Shown here: piece by piece, positions 6,157 through 18,622 of the stretch
How the letters are laid out: each line of letters opens with the position of its first letter
Position numbering within the stretch: position 1 is the stretch's first letter
DNA from: Aedoeadaptatus ivorii
Lineage (GTDB): Bacteria > Bacillota > Clostridia > Tissierellales > Peptoniphilaceae
Reading direction: 5' to 3'
Assembly: GCF_900638585.1 (NCBI RefSeq)
Contig: NZ_LR134523.1
Span: forward strand, 1,523,772-1,587,771
Length of the DNA: 64,000 nt
The notes under the pieces: generated by a model
Told to the model about the DNA's origin: nothing
What the model saw: only the letters and a program-made list of their open reading frames with translations
Databases searched by the model: none
Program-made: the position numbers and the translations under genes

Positions 6157-9100
6157 ATTTCAATCCACGCACCCCACACGGGGTGCGACAAACAAAGGGA
6201 TCCCAAGAAAGAGACAAAGATATGATTTTAATCCACGCACCCCACACGGGGTGCGACGGCGACGACATCGAGCGGGCGGTATTGCTGATGATTTCAATCC
6301 ACGCACCCCACACGGGGTGCGACTGGGACAGCCGCCTACATATCAAGTAAGAAGGGGATTTCAATCCACGCACCCCACACGGGGTGCGACTCACCACCAG
6401 CGAGATCGAGGGGCCGAGCTTTCGATTTCAATCCACGCACCCCACACGGGGTGCGACAAGCCTACAAGGCGGGCTACGCATGGGGTCAACAATTTCAATC
6501 CACGCACCCCACACGGGGTGCGACTTGCGTTGCTTGTATTTTCGATTTTTTCTCCCTTAATTTCAATCCACGCACCCCACACGGGGTGCGACCGGTTGGC
6601 TCGGCGTAAGATCTGCACGCCTTCCGGATTTCAATCCACGCACCCCACACGGGGTGCGACCGGTTGGCTCGGCGTAAGATCTGCACGCCTTCCGGATTTC
6701 AATCCACGCACCCCACACGGGGTGCGACCCCCGTATACGCGAGGGTGAGATCGGCGGCAATTTATTTCAATCCACGCACCCCACACGGGGTGCGACTAGC
6801 CACCGCGGTTTTGTTGCTTGGGGGCGCAGATTTCAATCCACGCATCCCACACGGGGTGCGACTAGCCACCGCGGTTTTGTTGCTTGGGGGCGCAGATTTC
6901 AATCCACGCACCCCACACGGGGTGCGACGTGCCTGAGACGACCGACAGTTTGCGGCTTTTTGACATTTCAATCCACGCACCCCACACGGGGTGCGACACC
7001 TCCACCACATCGATTCCAAGCGGCTCGAGTGATTTCAATCCACGCACCCCACACGGGGTGCGACTTGTTTTTCCTCCACAAGATAGACTGCCTCTTGTCA
7101 TTTCAATCCACGCACCCCACACGGGGTGCGACTTTATGCAATATCATCTATGGCACGTATCGGCAGATTTCAATCCACGCACCCCACACGGGGTGCGACA
7201 CAACAAACACGATTATCACTTACGACATAGCGCAATTTCAATCCACGCACCCCACACGGGGTGCGACCTGCAACGCGTAGGCCGCAATACCGCATTAAAC
7301 ATTTCAATCCACGCACCCCACACGGGGTGCGACGGGCACACTGGGGTGTTTTACAAAAAAAAGTCGAATTTCAATCCACGCACCCCACACGGGGTGCGAC
7401 AGCGATCAAAAAACCCGTAGCGCCTAGACCTGGAATTTCAATCCACGCACCCCACACGGGGTGCGACAGCGATCAAAAAACCCGTAGCGCCTAGACCTGG
7501 AATTTCAATCCACGCACCCCACACGGGGTGCGACCCCAGCGACCCGTCCGGGCCGCCCCGTAAAATTGATTTCAATCCACGCACCCCACACGGGGTGCGA
7601 CGGTTGTGGAAGTGCGACGTAAGGTTTAAGAAAGGAATTTCAATCCACGCACCCCACACGGGGTGCGACATAAAGCGATATATAATCACAAATATATAAT
7701 CATAATTTCAATCCACGCACCCCACACGGGGTGCGACGCTATAATGCGCACTCGAGGCGCGCAGCCGTTGTATTTCAATCCACGCACCCCACACGGGGTG
7801 CGACTTACGCTTGTATACAAGCTAGGAAAGTGGCGTATTATTTCAATCCACGCACCCCACACGGGGTGCGACTATATAACAACCGTAGCATCACACAGAT
7901 ATACCCATTTCAATCCACGCACCCCACACGGGGTGCGACCAGGGTTCTCGATGTCGATCTTCGACCAAGAGGTCATTTCAATCCACGCACCCCACACGGG
8001 GTGCGACCATGGTAGCCAAGCCGACACACAGGGCAGCTACAATTTCAATCCACGCACCCCACACGGGGTGCGACCTTGAGACGTTAACAAACCTAGAGCG
8101 TTTGGTAGGATTTCAATCCACGCACCCCACACGGGGTGCGACAAGGTGAACCGGTATATTGCGCTTCTACGTGAGGCATTTCAATCCACGCACCCCACAC
8201 GGGGTGCGACGCCTTTTACGATCAGCTATAGTGTCACAGATGTCATTTCAATCCACGCACCCCACACGGGGTGCGACCCATTTTTTTTAATCAAGATCTT
8301 GCGTAAAAGCAAATTTCAATCCACGCACCCCACACGGGGTGCGACCGATTACACGATTCCGCTAGAGCCTTTGGGAATTATTTCAATCCACGCACCCCAC
8401 ACGGGGTGCGACCTTCCTTCTCGGCGTTCGGCGCCGCATAGTAATGATTTCAATCCACGCACCCCACACGGGGTGCGACCGTCGAGCGTACTCAGAGGCT
8501 TAAAAGGGGGATACATTTCAATCCACGCACCCCACACGGGGTGCGACTAGAAGTTATTGTACTATCCATGTCCATAATGATGGATTTCAATCCACGCACC
8601 CCACACGGGGTGCGACAATCATCTCCCCCGGTAATTACCACGCGACCGCCATTTCAATCCACGCACCCCACACGGGGTGCGACGTGGCGCCTTTTTCGGC
8701 GGTAATGACGAGGACAAATTTCAATCCACGCACCCCACACGGGGTGCGACTCTAATCTTGTCTTTACCATCTCCCGGCTTACGCCATTTCAATCCACGCA
8801 CCCCACACGGGGTGCGACGCGGATCGGCGGTAAAAATATCTCAAAAAAAATATTTCAATCCACGCACCCCACACGGGGTGCGACGAGACGAATGGGACAC
8901 CGCGGGCATGCTCCCGAGTGATTTCAATCCACGCACCCCACACGGGGTGCGACTAGGTGGGGGTATTTAACTACGGTAACGTTTTTCCATTTCAATCCAC
9001 GCACCCCACACGGGGTGCGACGCGGGAGGTATAAAATGACTATTTATAAAGATATAATTTCAATCCACGCACCCCACACGGGGTGCGACGGGCTCAATAA

Positions 9101-9291
9101 TGTGCAAAAGGTAGCCGACGGCATTTCAATCCACGCACCCCACACGGGGTGCGACTCGTCATCAAAAATTATGACGGGCAAGACCTCGGGATTTCAATCC
9201 ACGCACCCCACACGGGGTGCGACCTTTATCGGGGTTTTTATCACAGCCGCAGGATCGGATTTCAATCCACGCACCCCACACGGGGTGCGAC
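6157..9291 (-). CRISPR. Type I-C CRISPR array, 47 repeats and 46 spacers
   Basis: The repeat is 33 bp; on the minus strand it carries the stem GCACCCC-GTGT-GGGGTGC and the tail GCGTGGATTGAAAT, the hallmark of type I-C. Repeat starts run from 6157 to 9259 at 66-69 bp steps, leaving spacers of 33-36 nt. Orientation and the leader at 9292-9447 put the newest spacers at the right end, next to cas2. Repeat variants: 6225 (one C to T in the tail region) and 6830 (one C to T in the stem), both in the old half. Three spacers are tandemly duplicated: 6593-6627/6661-6695, 6797-6829/6863-6895 and 7401-7434/7468-7501. Long near-perfect arrays of this kind are active or recently active. Confidence 0.98.
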
Positions 9292-9447: not shown

Positions 9448-9738
9448 CTAAAATATGATCGGATCTCCGGGCGCCAAAACTTCTTTGATTCCATAGTGCA
9501 AAACGGATTGTTTGTAGTTCTTACCCAATTTATAAATCCTTACAGAATCTTCTTTTGCATTATACGTTTCCTGAACTTCTTGTTTTAATTGGAAGAGTTG
9601 TCCCGAATCCAAATCACATTCATAGACGGAGTTTTGCACCCGCTGTCCATAGTTAAGGCAAATTTTTGCCATGCGATTCAATCGTCGTCTGCCTTCTTTG
9701 CTTTGCACGTTAATATCATAAGTGATCAGAATATTCAT
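9448..9738 (-). CDS. cas2: CRISPR integrase subunit Cas2 (type I-C)
   Basis: 96 aa, starting MNILITYDINVQSKEG, with the ferredoxin-like fold's first strand and conserved Asp (YDI) of Cas2. YECDLDSGQL and VRIYKL are further family segments. With Cas1 it forms the complex that inserts new spacers at the leader-proximal repeat. It is the last gene of the cas operon, 8 bases after cas1, with the leader and array directly downstream. Length is normal for type I-C Cas2. Confidence 0.95.
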   Translation of the reverse strand: MNILITYDINVQSKEGRRRLNRMAKICLNYGQRVQNSVYECDLDSGQLFQLKQEVQETYNAKEDSVRIYKLGKNYKQSVLHYGIKEVLAPGDPIIF

Positions 9739-9746
9739 TGATCCTC

Positions 9747-10778
9747 CTATTTCCAGAAAAATGGCGGATAGGCATCCAGGTCTTCACGAAGATATCTCGC
9801 CAATAGCTGCGCCTGAATATACGGGACCAATCCCCACGGCATTTTCTCCTGCAAATACGGATGGGTTAAACTTTCATATTTTTGTTTTTGCCACTGACTC
9901 AGATATTTCTTTCTGGCTTCGTCCGTCAATAATATAGCGCCGGATTCTTGTTCCAAAAAGTCTGGTTCTGTAAATTGTCCTCGATTGATCATGCGTAGCA
10001 CAAATCGATCGCAAATCATTACCCGAAATTCTTCTAGCAAGTCCAATGCAAGCGAAATTCGACCGGGCCGATCTGTATGGTTGAAACCCATATATGCGTC
10101 CAGTCCATTTGCTTCTAGTGCGGCGGCACAGTCGTATGACAGAAGGGAGTAGGCATAGGAAAGTAAAGCGTTGGGAGGATCTAATGGTGGTCTCTTGCTT
10201 CTGCCTCTGAAGTTAAAATACTCCGAATTCGTCAGAATCATATGCGGAAATACGCCGTAATACGTCGCTTGTGCGTCTCCTTCAATGCCGCGGAGTTCTT
10301 CTTTATTACTCGCAACTTTCGTCCGCTCTTTAGATTGTTTCAAATGTGTTATCGCATGGATAAAGACTTCCTCGCGAATGCGTAAAGCATATTGTTTGCG
10401 AAACCGAATCAAAAAGTTTCGCGCATTTATAATCTTTGCAAGAATAATCCATCGGCTGATCTTGAGAGAATCCTCCTGATTCAAGGCAATTTGAGCTTGT
10501 TTTTTCCTTAAAAGAATATTACCGCGACTCATGGAAACAAACCTTCCACAGAGTCTTCCATAATGATTTAGGATGACCACAGATACTTCTCTTTCACTGC
10601 ATTTTTCGAGAAGGGCAGCGCTGATTCCAGAGTAGGAAAAAGCTATGATGGATTCTAAGGCATGCAACGGAATCCGGTGTAAGATTTTTCCGTCTTGTAG
10701 CAATACGACATTTTCTCCTCGCAACCCCAAAAAGTAATCGGGACTGGTCACATACAGCGTGTTTAGTAATTTTTTCAT
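9747..10778 (-). CDS. cas1: CRISPR integrase Cas1 (type I-C)
   Basis: 343 aa from the ATG at 10778 (MKKLLNTLYVTSPDYFLGL); this start overlaps the cas4 stop as ATGA, so the longer in-frame extension to 10877 is not used. Catalytic residues are visible: Glu in GIEGDAQATYYG, His in GFNHTDRPGR and Asp in LALDLLEEFR. It is the metal-dependent nuclease/integrase that joins protospacers to the array. Typical length for the I-C subtype. Translationally coupled to cas4, which trims prespacers and checks the PAM. Confidence 0.97.
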   Translation of the reverse strand: MKKLLNTLYVTSPDYFLGLRGENVVLLQDGKILHRIPLHALESIIAFSYSGISAALLEKCSEREVSVVILNHYGRLCGRFVSMSRGNILLRKKQAQIALNQEDSLKISRWIILAKIINARNFLIRFRKQYALRIREEVFIHAITHLKQSKERTKVASNKEELRGIEGDAQATYYGVFPHMILTNSEYFNFRGRSKRPPLDPPNALLSYAYSLLSYDCAAALEANGLDAYMGFNHTDRPGRISLALDLLEEFRVMICDRFVLRMINRGQFTEPDFLEQESGAILLTDEARKKYLSQWQKQKYESLTHPYLQEKMPWGLVPYIQAQLLARYLREDLDAYPPFFWK

Positions 10779-11425
10779 GACGATTCTTCCTCTAAATGCG
10801 ACCGAATATAGGTAGATGCCGCTTGCCGGTTTCCCAGTTCTGGCAAGCAGATTTCTTTTAGAGAACAAGATCTGCATTTGGCGGTCCGCTTTACTTTTGG
10901 CGTATACGCTTTTCGAAACAGTGTATGCATCTCTCGTACCATTGCTTTAAGATCCGTACGCATCGCTTCGGTAAATACGACATTCTGTCGTCTTTTGATT
11001 TGGTCGTAAAAGATCGCTCCCTCTTCAATATTGGATGCGGTCATCTCTTCCAGACATATCGCCTGCGCCAATAATTGATAAACATCGCTATTGTCTGATT
11101 TCTCTGTGCCCCTCTTGTATTCAACGGGCATAATCTTATAATGACCGTCCCATCGCGGCAGATACACGCCTTTTGAATCCACCGTAAGTTCCACCAAATC
11201 GCACACACCCTCGATCTCTAGTTCTAAAGAGTGCACACGAAGAGACCGCACTTGAATCTGTTCTTTTCTTTTTTCATGAAAATAGGGATCGTCTACCCGA
11301 CTATGCACTTTCTCGCCATGAAGGGTTAAAAAGTTTTCTTTCCATGCCTGCTCGATATGGATCAATGCCCATTGTCTGCGGCAAAACACAAAATGCTGAA
11401 TCCCAGAGATCAGGAGCGCATCCAT
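10775..11425 (-). CDS. cas4: CRISPR exonuclease Cas4 (type I-C)
   Basis: 216 aa, starting MDALLISGIQHFVFCRRQW. Fe-S cluster cysteines: C15 in FCRRQW and the C-terminal CRSCSLKEIC group. RecB-like nuclease motifs: EGVCDLVE (Asp) and PVEYKRG (Glu and catalytic Lys). Works with Cas1-Cas2 in type I-C to select PAM-flanked prespacers and set their orientation. Start overlaps the end of cas7 closely; stop overlaps cas1 as ATGA, showing tight coupling. Confidence 0.95.
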   Translation of the reverse strand: MDALLISGIQHFVFCRRQWALIHIEQAWKENFLTLHGEKVHSRVDDPYFHEKRKEQIQVRSLRVHSLELEIEGVCDLVELTVDSKGVYLPRWDGHYKIMPVEYKRGTEKSDNSDVYQLLAQAICLEEMTASNIEEGAIFYDQIKRRQNVVFTEAMRTDLKAMVREMHTLFRKAYTPKVKRTAKCRSCSLKEICLPELGNRQAASTYIRSHLEEESS

Positions 11426-11426
11426 A

Positions 11427-12290
11427 TCAACGTCCGGAAAGGATTTCGACTCTCATCCCCTTCTCTTCGTATTCTTTTAATTTTTCCGCATTCAGATGCA
11501 CTTGAAATTGCTCATAATCGGAAATTTCTTCGGTAAGATCCATATTCGGATCGGTTTCAAGCAATCGGTGAATCTTACCGGAAGAGGCGACTCCCAGTTT
11601 GTTGGGATGGGTAAACCAAAAGACTTCCTGCACCTCCATACTGCCCTCCGGGCGTGCCGAAGAGGCATCGTTTGCGAAAAGGTCTATCAAGGATTCTTTA
11701 ATACACTCCGCATCCTCTTCCGTAAATCCCGTCTTTTCTGCAAAATACGGGTTAATGGAACCGCAGAATTTGTAAACGCCGTAATCGACGAAACTCTTGG
11801 TCCCCATCGTATCGGAAGATCTTTCTCCCTTTTTTGATTCCATGCCATTGGTCGATCGCGTAATTTGCATCGTCGAAATGGAAATGGGAAGAATCGATTT
11901 TGCCAAGCTCACCGAAACGGGGCCCCGTATTCCGATCGACTTTTTGTCGAAGGTGATGACTTGACCAAAAGCCCGCGTATCGCTCCAGGTGTTACAGAAG
12001 TAGTCGAAAATCTCTTTATCCTCTTTTCCCATTTCCTTTTTATGCGCTTTGTACCGAGCTTCCAAAGAATAATTCCCGTCGTCCACTCGCTCATTCGCTT
12101 GCACAAAAATGGGTTCGCCCAAGTCCTGCATACGGTTTCGGATTTTCCTCTTAATCGATACGTCGCTCATCTCTCCATGCGATGTAATATCCGTACGCGG
12201 CAGATTTCCATTTAGCGGATCTCCATTGGGATTGGCATTCTCTACGGAAAAAGTTACGATAAAATCAATTTTCTTATCCAAAGCGTTCAT
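11427..12290 (-). CDS. cas7: Cascade backbone Cas7 (Csd2, type I-C)
   Basis: 287 aa, starting MNALDKKIDFIVTFSVENANPNGDP, the characteristic Csd2 N-terminus with the RRM strand and NPNGDP loop. GIRGPVSVSLAKSILP and ITRSTNG are further family segments. Several copies coat the crRNA spacer and form the filament of the interference complex. Its ATG shares one base with the cas8c stop (TAATG), so it is translationally coupled. Length is normal for I-C. Confidence 0.95.
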   Translation of the reverse strand: MNALDKKIDFIVTFSVENANPNGDPLNGNLPRTDITSHGEMSDVSIKRKIRNRMQDLGEPIFVQANERVDDGNYSLEARYKAHKKEMGKEDKEIFDYFCNTWSDTRAFGQVITFDKKSIGIRGPVSVSLAKSILPISISTMQITRSTNGMESKKGERSSDTMGTKSFVDYGVYKFCGSINPYFAEKTGFTEEDAECIKESLIDLFANDASSARPEGSMEVQEVFWFTHPNKLGVASSGKIHRLLETDPNMDLTEEISDYEQFQVHLNAEKLKEYEEKGMRVEILSGR

Positions 12291-12769
12291 TATTTGTCCT
12301 CCTTCACATTTTCTGCGGCAATCTTTTGTTCTACTTCTTTGCTATTTTTCTCGGATTCATTTTTCGGTTTCTTTTTATAGAATTCCTGCATTTGGCCATA
12401 ATAACCAAAGAGGAAATTCTCGTCCAACGATTCTCTTTGTCCTTTCTGTTGCACCTCCTGTATTGCATTCATAAGCTTTGTGAGCTCTATTTCATAGTAC
12501 TGGGCAGATCCCGGTCGCGTGTTCCGCAAGCTTTGCATATAGGGTTGGATCTTTTTCGACAAATTAAGATGTATAAGACTGGGCCGATCGATAAACGCCG
12601 CCCAAAGTTTCATGGCATTTGTAGGCCGTGTCGCTTCATTACTGGTCTTTGACGCTTCTGTTCCCTCTGCACTTTTCTTGCTGTAAAGTACATCCCTTTC
12701 GATCTTGTCGTACACCGCCAGTAGTCTTCCATACAAATAAGATCGATCCTTACTTTTCAAATCGAGCAT
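12290..12769 (-). CDS. cas11c: Probable internally translated Cas11c
   Basis: Codon 555 of cas8c is an ATG (12769-12767), and the minus strand has AAAAAGGAGGAAAATTTCGCC directly before it: a full Shine-Dalgarno sequence inside the gene, 11 bases from the ATG. The resulting 159-aa product starts MLDLKSKDRSYLYGRLLAVY, the segment at which internal translation of Cas11c begins in other type I-C systems (established knowledge). Cas11 forms the small-subunit belly of the Cascade that stabilises the displaced strand. The call rests on the ribosome binding site, frame and position; product not shown. Confidence 0.8.
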   Translation of the reverse strand: MLDLKSKDRSYLYGRLLAVYDKIERDVLYSKKSAEGTEASKTSNEATRPTNAMKLWAAFIDRPSLIHLNLSKKIQPYMQSLRNTRPGSAQYYEIELTKLMNAIQEVQQKGQRESLDENFLFGYYGQMQEFYKKKPKNESEKNSKEVEQKIAAENVKEDK

Positions 12770-14431
12770 GGCGAAATTTTCCTCCTTTTTCATGTATTTT
12801 TTGTGATGCGCCGGCAAATCCTTACGGAATTTTTGCAACACTATACAGTCCGTATATAACTGGCTCTGCCAATGATATTTGTAGGCTATTCGGTTCTTTC
12901 CATTGGCCCAAGCACGCATGGCGAGTTCTTTGGGTAGCGGTTGCCGATCCATCATGCATCGCACCGCGTCTTCCATCAAATTTCCCGTAATCTTCTTGTT
13001 TCTCTGCCCCTCAACGACATAGCCTTTTTTTGTATCCTCTCCATATAGTGTATTGATAATCGCAAATATCGGAAGAACGCGTTCTCGATACTTTTCATTA
13101 TTATAGGAATAGTAAGGAAAATTCATCGTATCGTTCCAGTATTGCAGAATATCAATAAATTCAGATTCTGAGAATTTTCGGAAATATTTGATGGCGATCC
13201 GACCATTTGAGGTTTTTTCCAGTAGCAAAATAAAATAGTTGTACCATTTTTCTACATCCGGTTTTCGATTGCCTGTCAAACTTTGCCCCAAATTTTGGGA
13301 TCCGAGTTGCGCAAATATTCTTTCCAGTGTGCTACTTTCTTTCCCATCACCGGACACATCTGAGTCTTCTTCCTCATCACCGAATACATCCGAGTCTTCT
13401 TCCTCATCTGGACCCGATTTTGGGGAGAGCTGGTATGCCGTCGGATCGAATTTCGTCAGGTTTTCAATATCGTTTGAAAACCAATTGACCACGTAAGCAC
13501 CGGACCGAAGCCTGCGCCCCGTATCCTTGTTTTCCAATAGATACTTCAGCATTAAATGGATTTTTTGAGAAGTCTTAAACCCCACTCGAATCAGATCGTC
13601 TGTGGATTGATATAGGCCGCGATATACTTCGTAGCGATTGCTCCCCCCGATGACCTTAGCATTTCCCATTAATCCTCGGTGTTTCGATACACAATATGTG
13701 TATTCTCCAGATATATCGCAGTAATCCTTTTGCTTATCTTTGAGTTTCTCATCCATATAAGCGATGAAATTGTCATGTAGCGCAGTATTTTCTGTGACGG
13801 TGCATGTCGTATTGAATTCCAGATCATTCTCCGCTTGTTCAACGATAACAGCAAATGTTACGAATACTTCCTGCGCCTTCCACTCTTTCTTCTTTTCATC
13901 TTCCAGATAATGGACGGCCCCCTGCTTGTCTACAGAGTATATTTGCTTATTATACAAACTTTTCATGATATCCTTTAACACATCCGTATCCGGATGTAAG
14001 ATATACGCGCCGATTTTCTCTAGAAATGCATTGGGATTCGTTGCGGTATAACTCAGCCAATCCTGCAATTGCTCTCGATAGGCCTCGTGATGGGTATCTG
14101 ACACCCTTTTTGCAGTAGCTTCCGACATCTCTCGGGAGACATATTTTAGTTTGTCTACCAACGGGTGCGGCAGTACACCGTTTGCTCGTCCTATGGATTC
14201 TTCCGAAACCGGAAACTGAATATAGACGTCCTCAGGAACCCACGAAGCTTCTAAAAACTTTCCTTCTTTGTCCAATAAGATTTGGATAATATCTTTCCCA
14301 TTCGAGCGCTTATTATCGTGGTAGACCGGAAGAAGAACCGAGGCACCTTCTGCTGTTTCTTTATGATTATCGACCATGTTGGCTTTTTCCGCCAATTCAT
14401 AGGTTCTATATAAGCTATAAAGTGGATTCAT
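12290..14431 (-). CDS. cas8c: Cascade large subunit Cas8c (Csd1)
   Basis: 713 aa, starting MNPLYSLYRTYELAEKANMV, typical of Csd1/Cas8c. The protein recognises the PAM and recruits Cas3. Family length is usually about 570-700 aa; a D/E-rich insert (SGPDEEEDSDVFGDEEEDSD) around residues 340-360 accounts for some of the extra length and is partly an internal duplication of the EEEDSDV unit. The C-terminal 159 residues are also likely made separately as Cas11c (see next entry). It lies 3 bases after cas5 and overlaps cas7 by one base. Confidence 0.95.
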   Translation of the reverse strand: MNPLYSLYRTYELAEKANMVDNHKETAEGASVLLPVYHDNKRSNGKDIIQILLDKEGKFLEASWVPEDVYIQFPVSEESIGRANGVLPHPLVDKLKYVSREMSEATAKRVSDTHHEAYREQLQDWLSYTATNPNAFLEKIGAYILHPDTDVLKDIMKSLYNKQIYSVDKQGAVHYLEDEKKKEWKAQEVFVTFAVIVEQAENDLEFNTTCTVTENTALHDNFIAYMDEKLKDKQKDYCDISGEYTYCVSKHRGLMGNAKVIGGSNRYEVYRGLYQSTDDLIRVGFKTSQKIHLMLKYLLENKDTGRRLRSGAYVVNWFSNDIENLTKFDPTAYQLSPKSGPDEEEDSDVFGDEEEDSDVSGDGKESSTLERIFAQLGSQNLGQSLTGNRKPDVEKWYNYFILLLEKTSNGRIAIKYFRKFSESEFIDILQYWNDTMNFPYYSYNNEKYRERVLPIFAIINTLYGEDTKKGYVVEGQRNKKITGNLMEDAVRCMMDRQPLPKELAMRAWANGKNRIAYKYHWQSQLYTDCIVLQKFRKDLPAHHKKYMKKEENFAMLDLKSKDRSYLYGRLLAVYDKIERDVLYSKKSAEGTEASKTSNEATRPTNAMKLWAAFIDRPSLIHLNLSKKIQPYMQSLRNTRPGSAQYYEIELTKLMNAIQEVQQKGQRESLDENFLFGYYGQMQEFYKKKPKNESEKNSKEVEQKIAAENVKEDK

Positions 14432-14434
14432 CGC

Positions 14435-15187
14435 TTACTCCTCCCTATACTCCGGCTGATGGAGGGTCTCATCCGCGGTCTCTATGGAATCACCCGCCAA
14501 GTCGGGAATCTGATAATCCGTAACGGCATGATGAATTTCAGTGTCCTCCGGCCGCCTGAAAGAAAGAATACCGTTGATCAATTGGACGCGATCGAAATTG
14601 GCAGTAAGGCTTTCGCCCTTTTCTTCCGATTTGGGATAGTTAAAGGAATGAAACGCGGTGCCGAAATCCAGCTGTTGCCCTTCGTAAGGGCTCGCGAGCG
14701 CCTCATATTCTTCCCGCCGCAATCGTTCAATATATCCCAGACATTCCCTCGTGCCCAGAAAAATATCTCGGCGACCTCCTCGCTCCAGCGATCGCAAGAG
14801 AATTTGTGTGTGTTTAATCTCGTCGCGGTCTTTGTCCAGATCTTTCCGCGCCATGTTCCATTCGAAATGGAATTTCACCCCATACGCCACATCGCTTAAA
14901 TAGGTGTAGTAGTACCGATCCTGCCCGCCTTTATTTAACGGGACTAAAATTCCCTTTGTCTGGCTGCGTATTGGGTTTAGTACTTTTACTTCATCTATGA
15001 TGTATTCCAAGGTAGGTTTCCAGTACGCGGCGCTAATGATTCCCCTCAGCGCTTCAAATGTCGGTAACGAATAGGTGTATTTTTCTCCGCCGCCCTTTGT
15101 CGCAGGATCCGTAAAAAGCGCATAGTCTCCATAGATCCGGCAAAAGAATGGCTTCGATTGAAATTGTTGTTCTCGCGTGTTTACCAT
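14435..15187 (-). CDS. cas5c: crRNA endoribonuclease Cas5 (Cas5d/Cas5c, type I-C)
   Basis: 250 aa from the ATG at 15187 (MVNTREQQFQSKPFFCRIYG), chosen because TTTAGGAGGTACA precedes it; the longer frame to 15208 would place the start on the RBS. RAMP protein with the Cas5 N-terminal segment GDYALF and the glycine-rich ATKGGGEKYTYSLPTFEAL. Type I-C lacks Cas6, and Cas5 cuts the repeat RNA at the base of its stem and stays on the 5' handle. No cas6 is found here, in agreement. It lies 8 bases after cas3. Confidence 0.95.
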   Translation of the reverse strand: MVNTREQQFQSKPFFCRIYGDYALFTDPATKGGGEKYTYSLPTFEALRGIISAAYWKPTLEYIIDEVKVLNPIRSQTKGILVPLNKGGQDRYYYTYLSDVAYGVKFHFEWNMARKDLDKDRDEIKHTQILLRSLERGGRRDIFLGTRECLGYIERLRREEYEALASPYEGQQLDFGTAFHSFNYPKSEEKGESLTANFDRVQLINGILSFRRPEDTEIHHAVTDYQIPDLAGDSIETADETLHQPEYREE

Positions 15188-15195
15188 TGTACCTC

Positions 15196-17844
<2,649 letters not shown>

Positions 17845-17865
17845 ATTACCTCCTGTTTTATTTTC

Positions 17866-17899
17866 TATATATAGTACTCCCCCAATTCCTATTATACAT
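17866..17899 (+). promoter_or_regulatory. Pseudo-protospacer over the cas promoter (TTC PAM at 17863-17865)
   Basis: On the plus strand TTC, the standard type I-C PAM, is followed by TATATATAGTA (17866-17876). The 11-nt element after the solitary repeat at 18002-18012 reads TATATTTAGTA: identity at positions 1-5 and 7-11, with the only mismatch at position 6, a base that is flipped out and unpaired in type I crRNA-target duplexes. A 34-nt protospacer from here covers the cas start site and -10 (17891-17896). Candidate operator for Cascade-mediated autorepression. Confidence 0.65.
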
Positions 17900-17918
17900 A
17901 GATTCCTTTATTATGCAA
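17884..17918 (-). promoter_or_regulatory. Promoter of the cas operon
   Basis: Minus strand TTGCAT (17918-17913), 16-bp spacer, TATAAT (17896-17891), expected start near 17884, then a 40-bp leader with AGGAGGT before the cas3 ATG at 17844. Consensus -10 and near-consensus -35 make this the strongest promoter in the region. Confidence 0.75.
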
Positions 17919-17960
17919 TGGATATAGACAACTTTTTTGTTTTTAGCTATGGAACATCTG

Positions 17961-17969
17961 TGATATACT
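17961..17969 (+). promoter_or_regulatory. Extended -10 promoter for the solitary-repeat RNA
   Basis: TGATATACT fits the extended -10 form TGn-TATAnT. No good -35 at the right distance, which extended -10 promoters do not need. Expected start is about 17976, right at the 5' side of the repeat stem. Confidence 0.55.
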
Positions 17970-17970
17970 A

Positions 17971-18040
17971 TCTTCGCCGCCCAGTGGGCGTGGATTGAAA
18001 TTATATTTAGTATGGCAGCGTATTTATCGCTGCTATTTTT
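17971..18040 (+). ncRNA. Solitary I-C-like repeat RNA with short pseudo-spacer (candidate cas-repressing crRNA-like RNA)
   Basis: The plus strand has a lone degenerate repeat at 17971-18001: its last 14 bases (GCGTGGATTGAAAT) equal the array repeat, while the stem is replaced by CGCCC-AGT-GGGCG, a different sequence that still folds at the same place. Eleven pseudo-spacer bases (18002-18012) follow, then a terminator: GGCAGCG / CGCTGCT stem with a TATTTAT loop and TTTTT at 18036-18040. An extended -10 lies just upstream, so a discrete RNA of about 60-65 nt is expected, divergent from the cas operon. The pseudo-spacer matches a TTC-flanked site in the cas promoter. Known families of cas-regulating crRNA-like RNAs (CreR type) have this design in other subtypes. 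Alternative: a chance leftover of an old array. Confidence 0.7.
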
Positions 18041-18103: not shown

Positions 18104-18622
18104 TCACTTCCCCACCTCCGCAAGTGCCTTCTCATATACCGCCTTGGTCTTCTCATCGAACAGCACCCAAATTATTTCCATCTCGTGCCCTTCCGCCAAA
18201 AAATCTCGTGCCGTCTCGACGGCGATAGCCGCGGCTTCTTCGACGGGATAACCGAAAATACCGGTGGAGATCGACGGAAAGGCGATGCTTTTCACCCCGT
18301 TTTGGGCGGCGAGTTCGAGGCTATTCCGGTAAGACGCGCGCAAAAGCTTCGCTTCATTCGCATCGCCTCCGCGCCAAACGGGACCCGGCGTGTGGATGAT
18401 ATATTTGGCGGGCAGGCGAAAGCCGTCGGTGATAACGGCCTCTCCCGTGTCGCAATGGCCGATGGCATCGCAGGCGGCGGCGAGTTCTTTTGCCCCCGCG
18501 GCCGCAAAGATGGCGCCGCAGACGCCGCCCCCGCGCTTCAATCCCTCGTTGGCGGCATTGACGATGGCGTCGACTTCTATTTTTGTGATGTCTCCCAAGC
18601 GCATTTCGATTTTGGATTGCAT
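18104..18622 (-). CDS. Macrodomain protein, probable ADP-ribose / O-acetyl-ADP-ribose hydrolase
   Basis: 172 aa, ATG at 18622 with AAAGGAA before it. Classic macrodomain: DAIVNAANEGLKRGGGVCGA near the N-terminus (NAAN and the glycine loop), GEAVITDGFRLPAKYIIHT in the middle, and SISTGIFGYP near residue 125. YmdB-like members remove the acetyl group from O-acetyl-ADP-ribose or ADP-ribose from proteins in the cytoplasm. No ADP-ribosyltransferase or sirtuin gene is adjacent, so a partner is not indicated. Stand-alone gene, converging on the end of the solitary-repeat RNA. Confidence 0.9.
   Translation of the reverse strand: MQSKIEMRLGDITKIEVDAIVNAANEGLKRGGGVCGAIFAAAGAKELAAACDAIGHCDTGEAVITDGFRLPAKYIIHTPGPVWRGGDANEAKLLRASYRNSLELAAQNGVKSIAFPSISTGIFGYPVEEAAAIAVETARDFLAEGHEMEIIWVLFDEKTKAVYEKALAEVGK

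What the first reader, a model, noticed from the sequence alone, without database searches (positions are those of the whole stretch)
17863..18040. Candidate crRNA-like RNA that would turn the type I-C Cascade onto its own cas promoter
Seen: a solitary degenerate I-C repeat (17971-18001) stands divergent to cas3, with an extended -10 (TGATATACT, 17961-17969) just upstream and a terminator hairpin (18013-18040) right after. Its 3' 14 bases equal the array repeat; its stem is a different but still paired sequence (CGCCC-AGT-GGGCG). The 11 bases after the repeat (TATATTTAGTA) match TATATATAGTA at 17866-17876, and that site is preceded by TTC, the known I-C PAM. The only mismatch is position 6, which type I crRNAs leave unpaired. 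The protospacer covers the start site and -10 of a strong cas promoter (17891-17918). Established knowledge: cas-regulating crRNA-like RNAs (CreR) with degenerate repeats repress cas promoters by short seed matches. Inference: this is such an autorepressor for a type I-C system, with a terminator instead of a second repeat. It could also calibrate Cascade level or relieve repression under phage attack.
Basis: partly seen in the sequence, partly recalled or inferred. Interest (0 to 1): 0.95.

Follow-up and report, generated by a model that had tools for sequence, protein, structure and literature searches.

The report
CRISPR system's self-silencing guide RNA
Beside the type I-C CRISPR genes of this bacterium lies a single worn-down CRISPR repeat that likely makes a small guide RNA predicted to steer the CRISPR machinery onto its own gene switch and turn it down; the same guide-and-target pairing recurs in dozens of other bacteria of the phylum.

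Summary
A solitary, degenerate I-C repeat (17971-18001) is followed by an 11-nt guide matching, except at position 6, a TTC-flanked site (17863-17876) in the cas3 leader; that TTC+guide motif occurs once in the 1.59-Mb genome. I tested the idea on 148 type I-C loci plus 80 named ones. Of 85 solitary handles in the first set, 26 have a 10/10 match (positions 1-5, 7-11) to a TTC site within 450 nt, against 0 of 425 shuffled and 0 of 425 swapped guides; in the named set 29 of 196 against 0 of 980. Among the 51 such elements, positions not used to choose them show Cascade's 6-nt rhythm: 13-15 match in 46-48, while 6, 12 and 18 stay near background. The sites lie beside cas5 or cas3 in 57 of 59. 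Guides and sites differ between species but stay matched. This works like a CreR autorepressor, in subtype I-C. The window's copy has only the minimal seed known from I-B; no transcript or repression was shown. I could not read the 2023 survey that may already list I-C cases.

The parts
17971..18001 (+). Solitary degenerate type I-C repeat (psi-repeat): hairpin CGCCC-AGT-GGGCG (17978-17990) plus handle TGGATTGAAAT (17991-18001)
18002..18012 (+). Guide (pseudo-spacer) TATATTTAGTA; positions 1-5 and 7-11 match the target
18012..18036 (+). Terminator-like hairpin with T-rich tail, in place of a second repeat
   Evidence: prediction
17961..17969 (+). Extended -10 (TGATATACT) of the predicted CreR promoter; predicted start about 17976
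   Evidence: sequence; best -10 hexamer lies 22-25 nt before the handle in several relatives, scattered in others; not listed by the strict scan
17863..17865 (+). TTC PAM on the non-target strand
   Evidence: TTC in 26 of the 30 10/10 sites of the first set
17866..17876 (+). Target site TATATATAGTA in the cas3 leader
   Evidence: unique in the genome
17891..17918 (-). Predicted cas3-operon promoter: -10 TATAAT (17896-17891), -35 TTGCAT (17918-17913), 16-nt spacer; start about 17884
   Evidence: sequence; not listed by the strict scan
15196..17844 (-). cas3, first gene of the operon; overlaps cas5, so there is no gap for a separate cas5 promoter
14435..15208 (-). cas5c, the predicted processing nuclease and handle binder
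12290..14431 (-). cas8c
11427..12290 (-). cas7c
10775..11425 (-). cas4
9747..10877 (-). cas1
9448..9738 (-). cas2
6157..9291 (-). CRISPR array, 33-nt repeat, about 47 copies (46 with the exact handle); ends approximate

Best explanation
The element at 17971-18036 is a likely type I-C CreR: a solitary degenerate CRISPR repeat whose 11-nt guide matches, except at position 6, a TTC-flanked site in the cas3 leader, and which is predicted to bring Cascade there and repress the cas operon. Steps: (1) an RNA of about 65 nt would start near 17976 and end at the terminator near 18040 (inferred from consensus elements). (2) Cas5c would cut at the base of the CGCCC/GGGCG hairpin, leaving the UGGAUUGAAAU handle (inferred; the handle is identical to the array's). 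(3) Cas5c, Cas7, Cas8c and Cas11c would assemble on it, probably as a short complex, since the terminator stem begins at about guide position 11-13 (inferred). (4) It would bind the TTC site by the seed pairs 1-5 and 7-11 and block transcription of cas3-cas5-cas8c-cas7-cas4-cas1-cas2 (the match is shown, the effect inferred). (5) The pairing is too short to be expected to trigger Cas3 cleavage (inferred from CreA). (6) More Cascade would mean more repression; drawing Cascade away by crRNAs or an anti-CRISPR would relieve it (inferred by analogy with CreR).
For: 10/10 seed match at a TTC site, unique in 1.59 Mb; chance 2 of 125,980 mock guides. First survey: 26 of 85 solitary handles have a 10/10 TTC match within 450 nt, 0 of 425 shuffled and 0 of 425 swapped guides (10/10 at other PAMs: 3 of 85 observed, 2 and 3 of 425 in the controls). 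Named survey: 29 of 196, four of them in loci already counted, against 0 of 980 shuffled. PAM not imposed: of 30 10/10 sites in the first set 26 are TTC and 2 TTT, the two PAMs that PMC10865793 (passages) gives for a I-C Cascade. Rhythm in the 51 elements with 10/10 at TTC, at positions not required for choosing them: 13 to 17 match in 48, 48, 46, 39, 28; 6, 12 and 18 in 14, 11 and 15; swap backgrounds 0.27-0.43. 57 of 59 sites lie beside cas5 (38) or cas3 (19). Family: 15 distinct guide cores in 18 elements, own match 9-10 of 10, cross match mean 4.8. Perfect stems of at least 4 bp abut the handle in 21 of 32 matched against 10 of 53 unmatched handles. The same seed (1-5, 7-11, TTC PAM) was shown by mutation to be needed for CreA-guided repression with a type I-B Cascade (PMC8501985, passages). 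A I-C Cascade without Cas3 lowers expression when its spacer overlaps a -10 (PMC10865793, passages).
Against: No transcript or repression data. The window's own pairing is the shortest class: the run of matches ends at 11 in only 3 of 59 (window, L063, L075), while 36 of 59 end at 15-17. The paired stretch lies downstream of the predicted start site. Both predicted promoters have weak -35 boxes and neither is listed by the strict scan. Aedoeadaptatus urinae, a genus-mate (L079), has a I-C locus in which no such handle was found, and 10 of 28 family loci have no matched element. At least five authentic-looking solitary repeats in the first set have no 10/10 site nearby (judged by eye).
Confidence: 0.88

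Rival explanations
1. The RNA acts as an ordinary antisense small RNA on the cas3 leader mRNA, next to the ribosome-binding site, without Cascade.
For: In the window the guide is complementary to the cas3 mRNA leader, as it is in 36 of the 57 elements with an assigned gene.
Against: In 21 of 57 (20 without the ambiguous L086) the guide has the same sense as the mRNA and cannot pair with it, yet these too sit at TTC sites. A PAM and free positions 6 and 12 have no meaning for RNA-RNA pairing.
Confidence: 0.05
2. A decayed single repeat left from a lost array; the seed match is chance.
For: Solitary repeats can arise by array decay; the matched stretch is AT-rich and low in complexity (shuffle chance 4.6e-4).
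Against: Matches recur with 50 different guide cores in 59 elements and 10/10 TTC matches never appear in the shuffles; 18 of 20 hairpin-bearing handles in the family match.
Confidence: 0.04
3. An RNA antitoxin of a CreTA or CrePA module that represses a toxin, not the cas genes.
For: CreA has the same anatomy, including a one-repeat form with terminator (PMC8501985, passages).
Against: The target site lies 21 nt before the cas3 start codon, with no room for a gene between. In 57 of 59 elements the assigned gene is cas5 or cas3.
Confidence: 0.02
4. A Racr: a repeat mimic brought by a phage to jam the I-C system.
For: Racrs are solitary repeats, also for I-C (PMC10651486, passages).
Against: It lies between cas3 and a macro-domain gene followed by kdpA and has a guide-target match, which a Racr does not need. 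I did not scan the whole window for prophage genes.
Confidence: 0.01

Closest known systems
CreR (cas-regulating RNA), reported for type I-B, I-E and V-A (PMC13131331, passage; primary paper not read)
   Same: crRNA-like element in the cas locus with a guide partly matching the promoter region of its own cas operon; no toxin gene.
   Different: Subtype I-C, which has no Cas6: predicted processing by Cas5c; one repeat plus terminator; in relatives the site may be on either strand, and one locus (L099) has two elements, for cas3 and for cas5.
CreA of haloarchaeal CreTA modules, type I-B (PMC8501985, passages)
   Same: Seed 1-5 and 7-11, TTC PAM, unpaired 6 and 12; the H. hispanica form has one repeat and ends in a terminator.
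   Different: Target here is the cas operon, not a toxin; different subtype and processing enzyme.
Racr, solitary repeats of phages (PMC10651486, passages)
   Same: One repeat unit, crRNA-like, one tested for I-C.
   Different: Here in a cas locus, with a guide that matches the cas leader.
Long-form tracrRNA autorepression of Cas9 (recalled; seen only as a reference title and one review sentence)
   Same: Effector repressed through a natural RNA guide on its own promoter.
   Different: Class 2, unrelated RNA.

Membership tests
CreR | Repeat-like sequence outside an array, degenerate, stem kept | tested here: met
CreR | Guide with partial (seed) match to a PAM-flanked site at the promoter region of the cognate cas operon | tested here: met
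   10/10 core, TTC, unique in genome; the pairs lie in the leader, just downstream of the predicted start
CreR | Guide and site kept as a pair in related loci | tested here: met
CreR | Own promoter and 3' end | tested here: inconclusive
   extended -10 by eye, terminator hairpin by scan
CreR | Small RNA made, processed and bound by the effector | not testable with these tools
   needs small-RNA sequencing or pull-down
CreR | Represses cas expression with the effector | not testable with these tools
   needs a reporter
CreR | No toxin gene coupled to it | tested here: met
   site 21 nt before cas3 ATG, no room for a gene between
CreTA / CrePA | Guide represses a toxin gene next to it | tested here: not met
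   the gene at the site is cas3
Racr | Carried by a phage, plasmid or other mobile element | tested here: not met
   immediate neighbours are cas3, a macro-domain gene and kdpA; the wider window was not scanned for phage genes
Mini-CRISPR array | Two repeats flanking the guide | tested here: not met
   only one exact handle on this strand; a terminator hairpin follows. A strongly diverged second repeat was not searched for beyond this.

The most novel reading that the evidence does not exclude
Type I-C systems of Firmicutes commonly carry a one-repeat, terminator-ended guide that builds a truncated Cascade too short to call Cas3, so that the immune complex meters its own production; some loci split the control, with one guide for the Cascade operon and another for cas3 (as in L099), letting the cell set the DNA-binding and DNA-cutting parts separately.
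Probability: 0.35. Interest if true: 0.78.

Novelty: new variant of a known kind. Interest (0 to 1): 0.64.

Why it matters
If true, guide-RNA autorepression of cas genes extends to type I-C, a common subtype without Cas6. The 59 natural guide-target pairs show, from evolution alone, which guide positions a I-C Cascade appears to read (1-5, 7-11, 13-17) and which it ignores (6, 12, 18), and they give ready-made reporters for testing how cas expression responds to crRNA supply and anti-CRISPRs. Several carriers are named species (for example Streptococcus cristatus, S. thoraltensis, Heyndrickxia ginsengihumi, several Paenibacillus).

Tried and rejected
Length of the guide set by the terminator: I expected the match to end where the terminator stem begins; over 34 elements there is no correlation (rho -0.15, P 0.39), so this is dropped as a rule. 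The window has the earliest terminator start of those 34 and a short match.

-10 boxes upstream of the hairpin: perfect TATAAT in 20 of 59 against 6% of shuffles, but best-hexamer positions scatter, so this is only supporting.

Rfam: no family at gathering score in the whole window.

Parallel guide/site changes (140 parallel, 4 one-sided over 70 non-independent pairs): for positions 1-11 this is partly forced by choosing matched elements; only positions 13-15 are free of that, and the pairs share ancestry. I do not count it as evidence.

Rows dropped or added before counts: L197 (10/10, PAM GTG) was left out of the first set; from the named set four duplicates of loci already counted and four 10/10 hits with PAM TAA, GTA, CTC, CCC. 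Kept in the 59: six elements at 9/10 and two with PAM TTT. Four of the six 9/10 elements were kept only with at least 13 of 20 matches, and ties between sites were broken by total matches, so the rhythm is quoted from the 51 elements with 10/10 at TTC. In an earlier count I ran only 18 of the 28 family loci, picked from the listing; the full count over 28 loci is 18 of 20.

Literature: the 2023 survey of CRISPR-derived RNA elements (10.1093/nar/gkad495) is not held; its abstract is recalled only. No listed title of nine searches described a I-C CreR (some lists were capped at 15-25 of thousands). PMC11417383 and PMC11288051 were searched for passages and gave nothing relevant.

Full report
What is there. 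The window is the end of a 1.588-Mb single-contig genome. The window holds a complete type I-C system, cas3-cas5c-cas8c-cas7c-cas4-cas1-cas2, all on the minus strand, with an array of about 47 repeats of 33 nt. Between cas3 and a macro-domain gene, on the opposite strand, stands one degenerate repeat with an extended -10 just before it and a terminator-like hairpin just after the guide.

The match. The handle ends at 18001. The next 11 bases, TATATTTAGTA, equal the site TATATATAGTA at 17866-17876 except at position 6, and TTC precedes the site. TTCTATATNTAGTA occurs once in the genome, here. Of 125,980 mock guides taken from the rest of the window, 2 hit any TTC site of this intergenic region at 10/10; shuffling the guide's own letters gives 4.6e-4. 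Beyond position 11 the window's guide does not match, apart from scattered letters. This is exactly the seed (1-5 and 7-11, TTC PAM) that was defined by mutation for a haloarchaeal CreA with a type I-B Cascade (PMC8501985, passages).

First survey. I searched whole genomes for Cas8c (PF09709) in family, order, class and phylum (28 of 130, 31 of 249, 61 of 391 and 102 of 398 genomes; the groups overlap) and fetched 147 loci. Not every hit was fetched: places too near a contig end or broken were skipped, as were some phylum hits. With the window this makes 148. They hold 85 solitary GGRTTGAAR handles in 66 loci. For each I looked for the best site within 450 nt, with any PAM. 26 have a 10/10 core match at TTC, 3 a 10/10 match at another PAM, 4 a 9/10 match at TTC. 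Five rounds of shuffled guides gave 0 of 425 at 10/10 TTC, and so did guides swapped between loci; at other PAMs they gave 2 and 3. Listing every 10/10 site gives TTC 26, TTT 2, TAC 1, GTG 1. TTC and TTT are the PAMs used for a type I-C Cascade from Neisseria (PMC10865793, passages).

Family without selection on the match. In the 28 family loci I took all solitary handles with a perfect stem of at least 4 bp: 20. 18 have a 9/10 or 10/10 site; the exceptions are a second handle in L063 and one in L082. Of 17 of these checked one by one, 14 sites are at TTC, 2 at TTT, and L086 has TAC on the expected strand and TTC on the other. So 18 of 28 family loci carry a matched element. Ten do not, among them A. 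urinae of the same genus (L079) and some broken or short loci (L066, L067, L078).

Second survey. A Cas7 alignment found 80 named loci, kept as the best 80 of 564; seven share sequence with the first set. They hold 196 solitary handles by a wider pattern; 29 have a 10/10 TTC match, against 0 of 980 shuffled; four of the 29 are in loci already counted. Carriers include Streptococcus thoraltensis, S. cristatus, Veillonella intestinalis, Enterococcus sp., Aquibacillus, Heyndrickxia, Halalkalibacter, Pullulanibacillus, Natribacillus, Salibacterium and several Paenibacillus.

Joint set. After dropping duplicates and odd PAMs 59 elements remain, 51 of them with 10/10 at TTC. In these 51, positions 6 and 12-20 were not required to match. 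Matches at 13, 14, 15, 16, 17 are 48, 48, 46, 39, 28; at 6, 12 and 18 they are 14, 11 and 15. Swap backgrounds, computed on the 59, are 0.31-0.43 for 13-17 and 0.34, 0.27 and 0.33 for 6, 12 and 18. This is the every-sixth-base rule of type I complexes (stated for I-B in PMC8501985, passages; for I-C inferred). 38 sites lie beside cas5 and 19 beside cas3; two have no gene assigned. The element seems to follow the promoter: in L003, L005 and L006 it lies in the gap between cas3 and cas5; in the window the two genes overlap and it lies before cas3. L099 carries two elements, one for each promoter region, with different guides.

Mechanism. In 36 of 57 elements the guide is antisense to the cas mRNA and in 21 it has the mRNA's sense (one of them, L086, ambiguous), which excludes RNA-RNA pairing for those and points to DNA binding. 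L118 is an example: the TTC overlaps the end of a predicted -10 (TATATT) and the seed runs over the predicted start site on the coding strand. A I-C Cascade lacking Cas3 lowers expression of a gene when its spacer overlaps the -10 (PMC10865793, passages). Cas5c and a Cas7 clamp the 5' handle in the I-C Cascade structure and seven Cas7 span a full crRNA (PMC7684278, passages); Cas5 does the processing in I-C (PMC10651486, legend passage). From these I infer that the CreR RNA is cut by Cas5c and loads a Cascade that sits on the cas promoter region. The stem of the repeat differs between species: 19 different perfect stems in the 36 elements that have one of at least 4 bp, for example CAGC/GCTG, CAGAG/CTCTG, CTAGT/ACTAG, CGTAGT/ACTACG, CGCCC/GGGCG, while the handle stays. 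Repeat degeneration is known to make CreA specific to its own locus (PMC9458426, abstract and passages).

What is weak. No RNA or repression was measured. Promoters and terminator are consensus predictions. The window's pairing is minimal: only 3 of 59 elements have a run of matches ending at 11. Its paired stretch is in the leader, so the block may act on early elongation or promoter escape rather than on RNA polymerase binding. One-repeat CreA is less abundant and represses less than two-repeat CreA in haloarchaea (PMC8501985, passage), so repression here may be mild. In 23 of 59 elements no perfect stem of 4 bp abuts the handle, so those repeats are imperfect or some are not functional.

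Novelty. A 2026 review names CreR for I-B, I-E and V-A (PMC13131331, passage); [quoted passage not shown] No listed title of nine searches describes a I-C CreR. The survey of Shmakov and colleagues (2023) could not be read and from memory covers mostly type I, so I-C cases may be in its tables; in that case this would be a new member rather than a new variant. I file the element as working like a CreR, with the sequence features that I could test met, its promoter inconclusive and its RNA and effect untested.

Noticed in passing
window 6560-6693, 6764-6895, 7366-7499: Three pairs of neighbouring array units carry the same spacer (units identical or 98% alike), a sign of tandem duplication in the array.
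   Followed up: no
L099 2990-3040 and 5380-5440: One I-C locus has two separate CreR-like elements, one matching the cas5 promoter region and one the cas3 promoter region, with different guides and stems.
   Followed up: partly
L002 3970-4719 (same locus as L075 and L208): The matched site lies 751 nt before cas3; ORFs listed between are all under 60 aa, so a CreT-like RNA could hide there.
   Followed up: partly
L176:5293-, L181:3215+, L190:3609+, L195:3126-, L203:540+: Authentic-looking solitary I-C repeats without a 10/10 site within 450 nt (judged by eye; scanned-strand coordinates); they may have other targets.
   Followed up: no
family elements: In 12 of 18 family elements guide position 6 is T opposite A in the site; a free position should vary more, though shared ancestry may explain it.
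   Followed up: no
L118 2985-3020: The CreR terminator seems shared with the gene on the other side, as one hairpin with T-runs both ways.
   Followed up: no
window 18104-18622: A macro-domain (ADP-ribose binding) gene lies directly beyond the CreR, then kdpA; no link to the CRISPR locus was tested.
   Followed up: no
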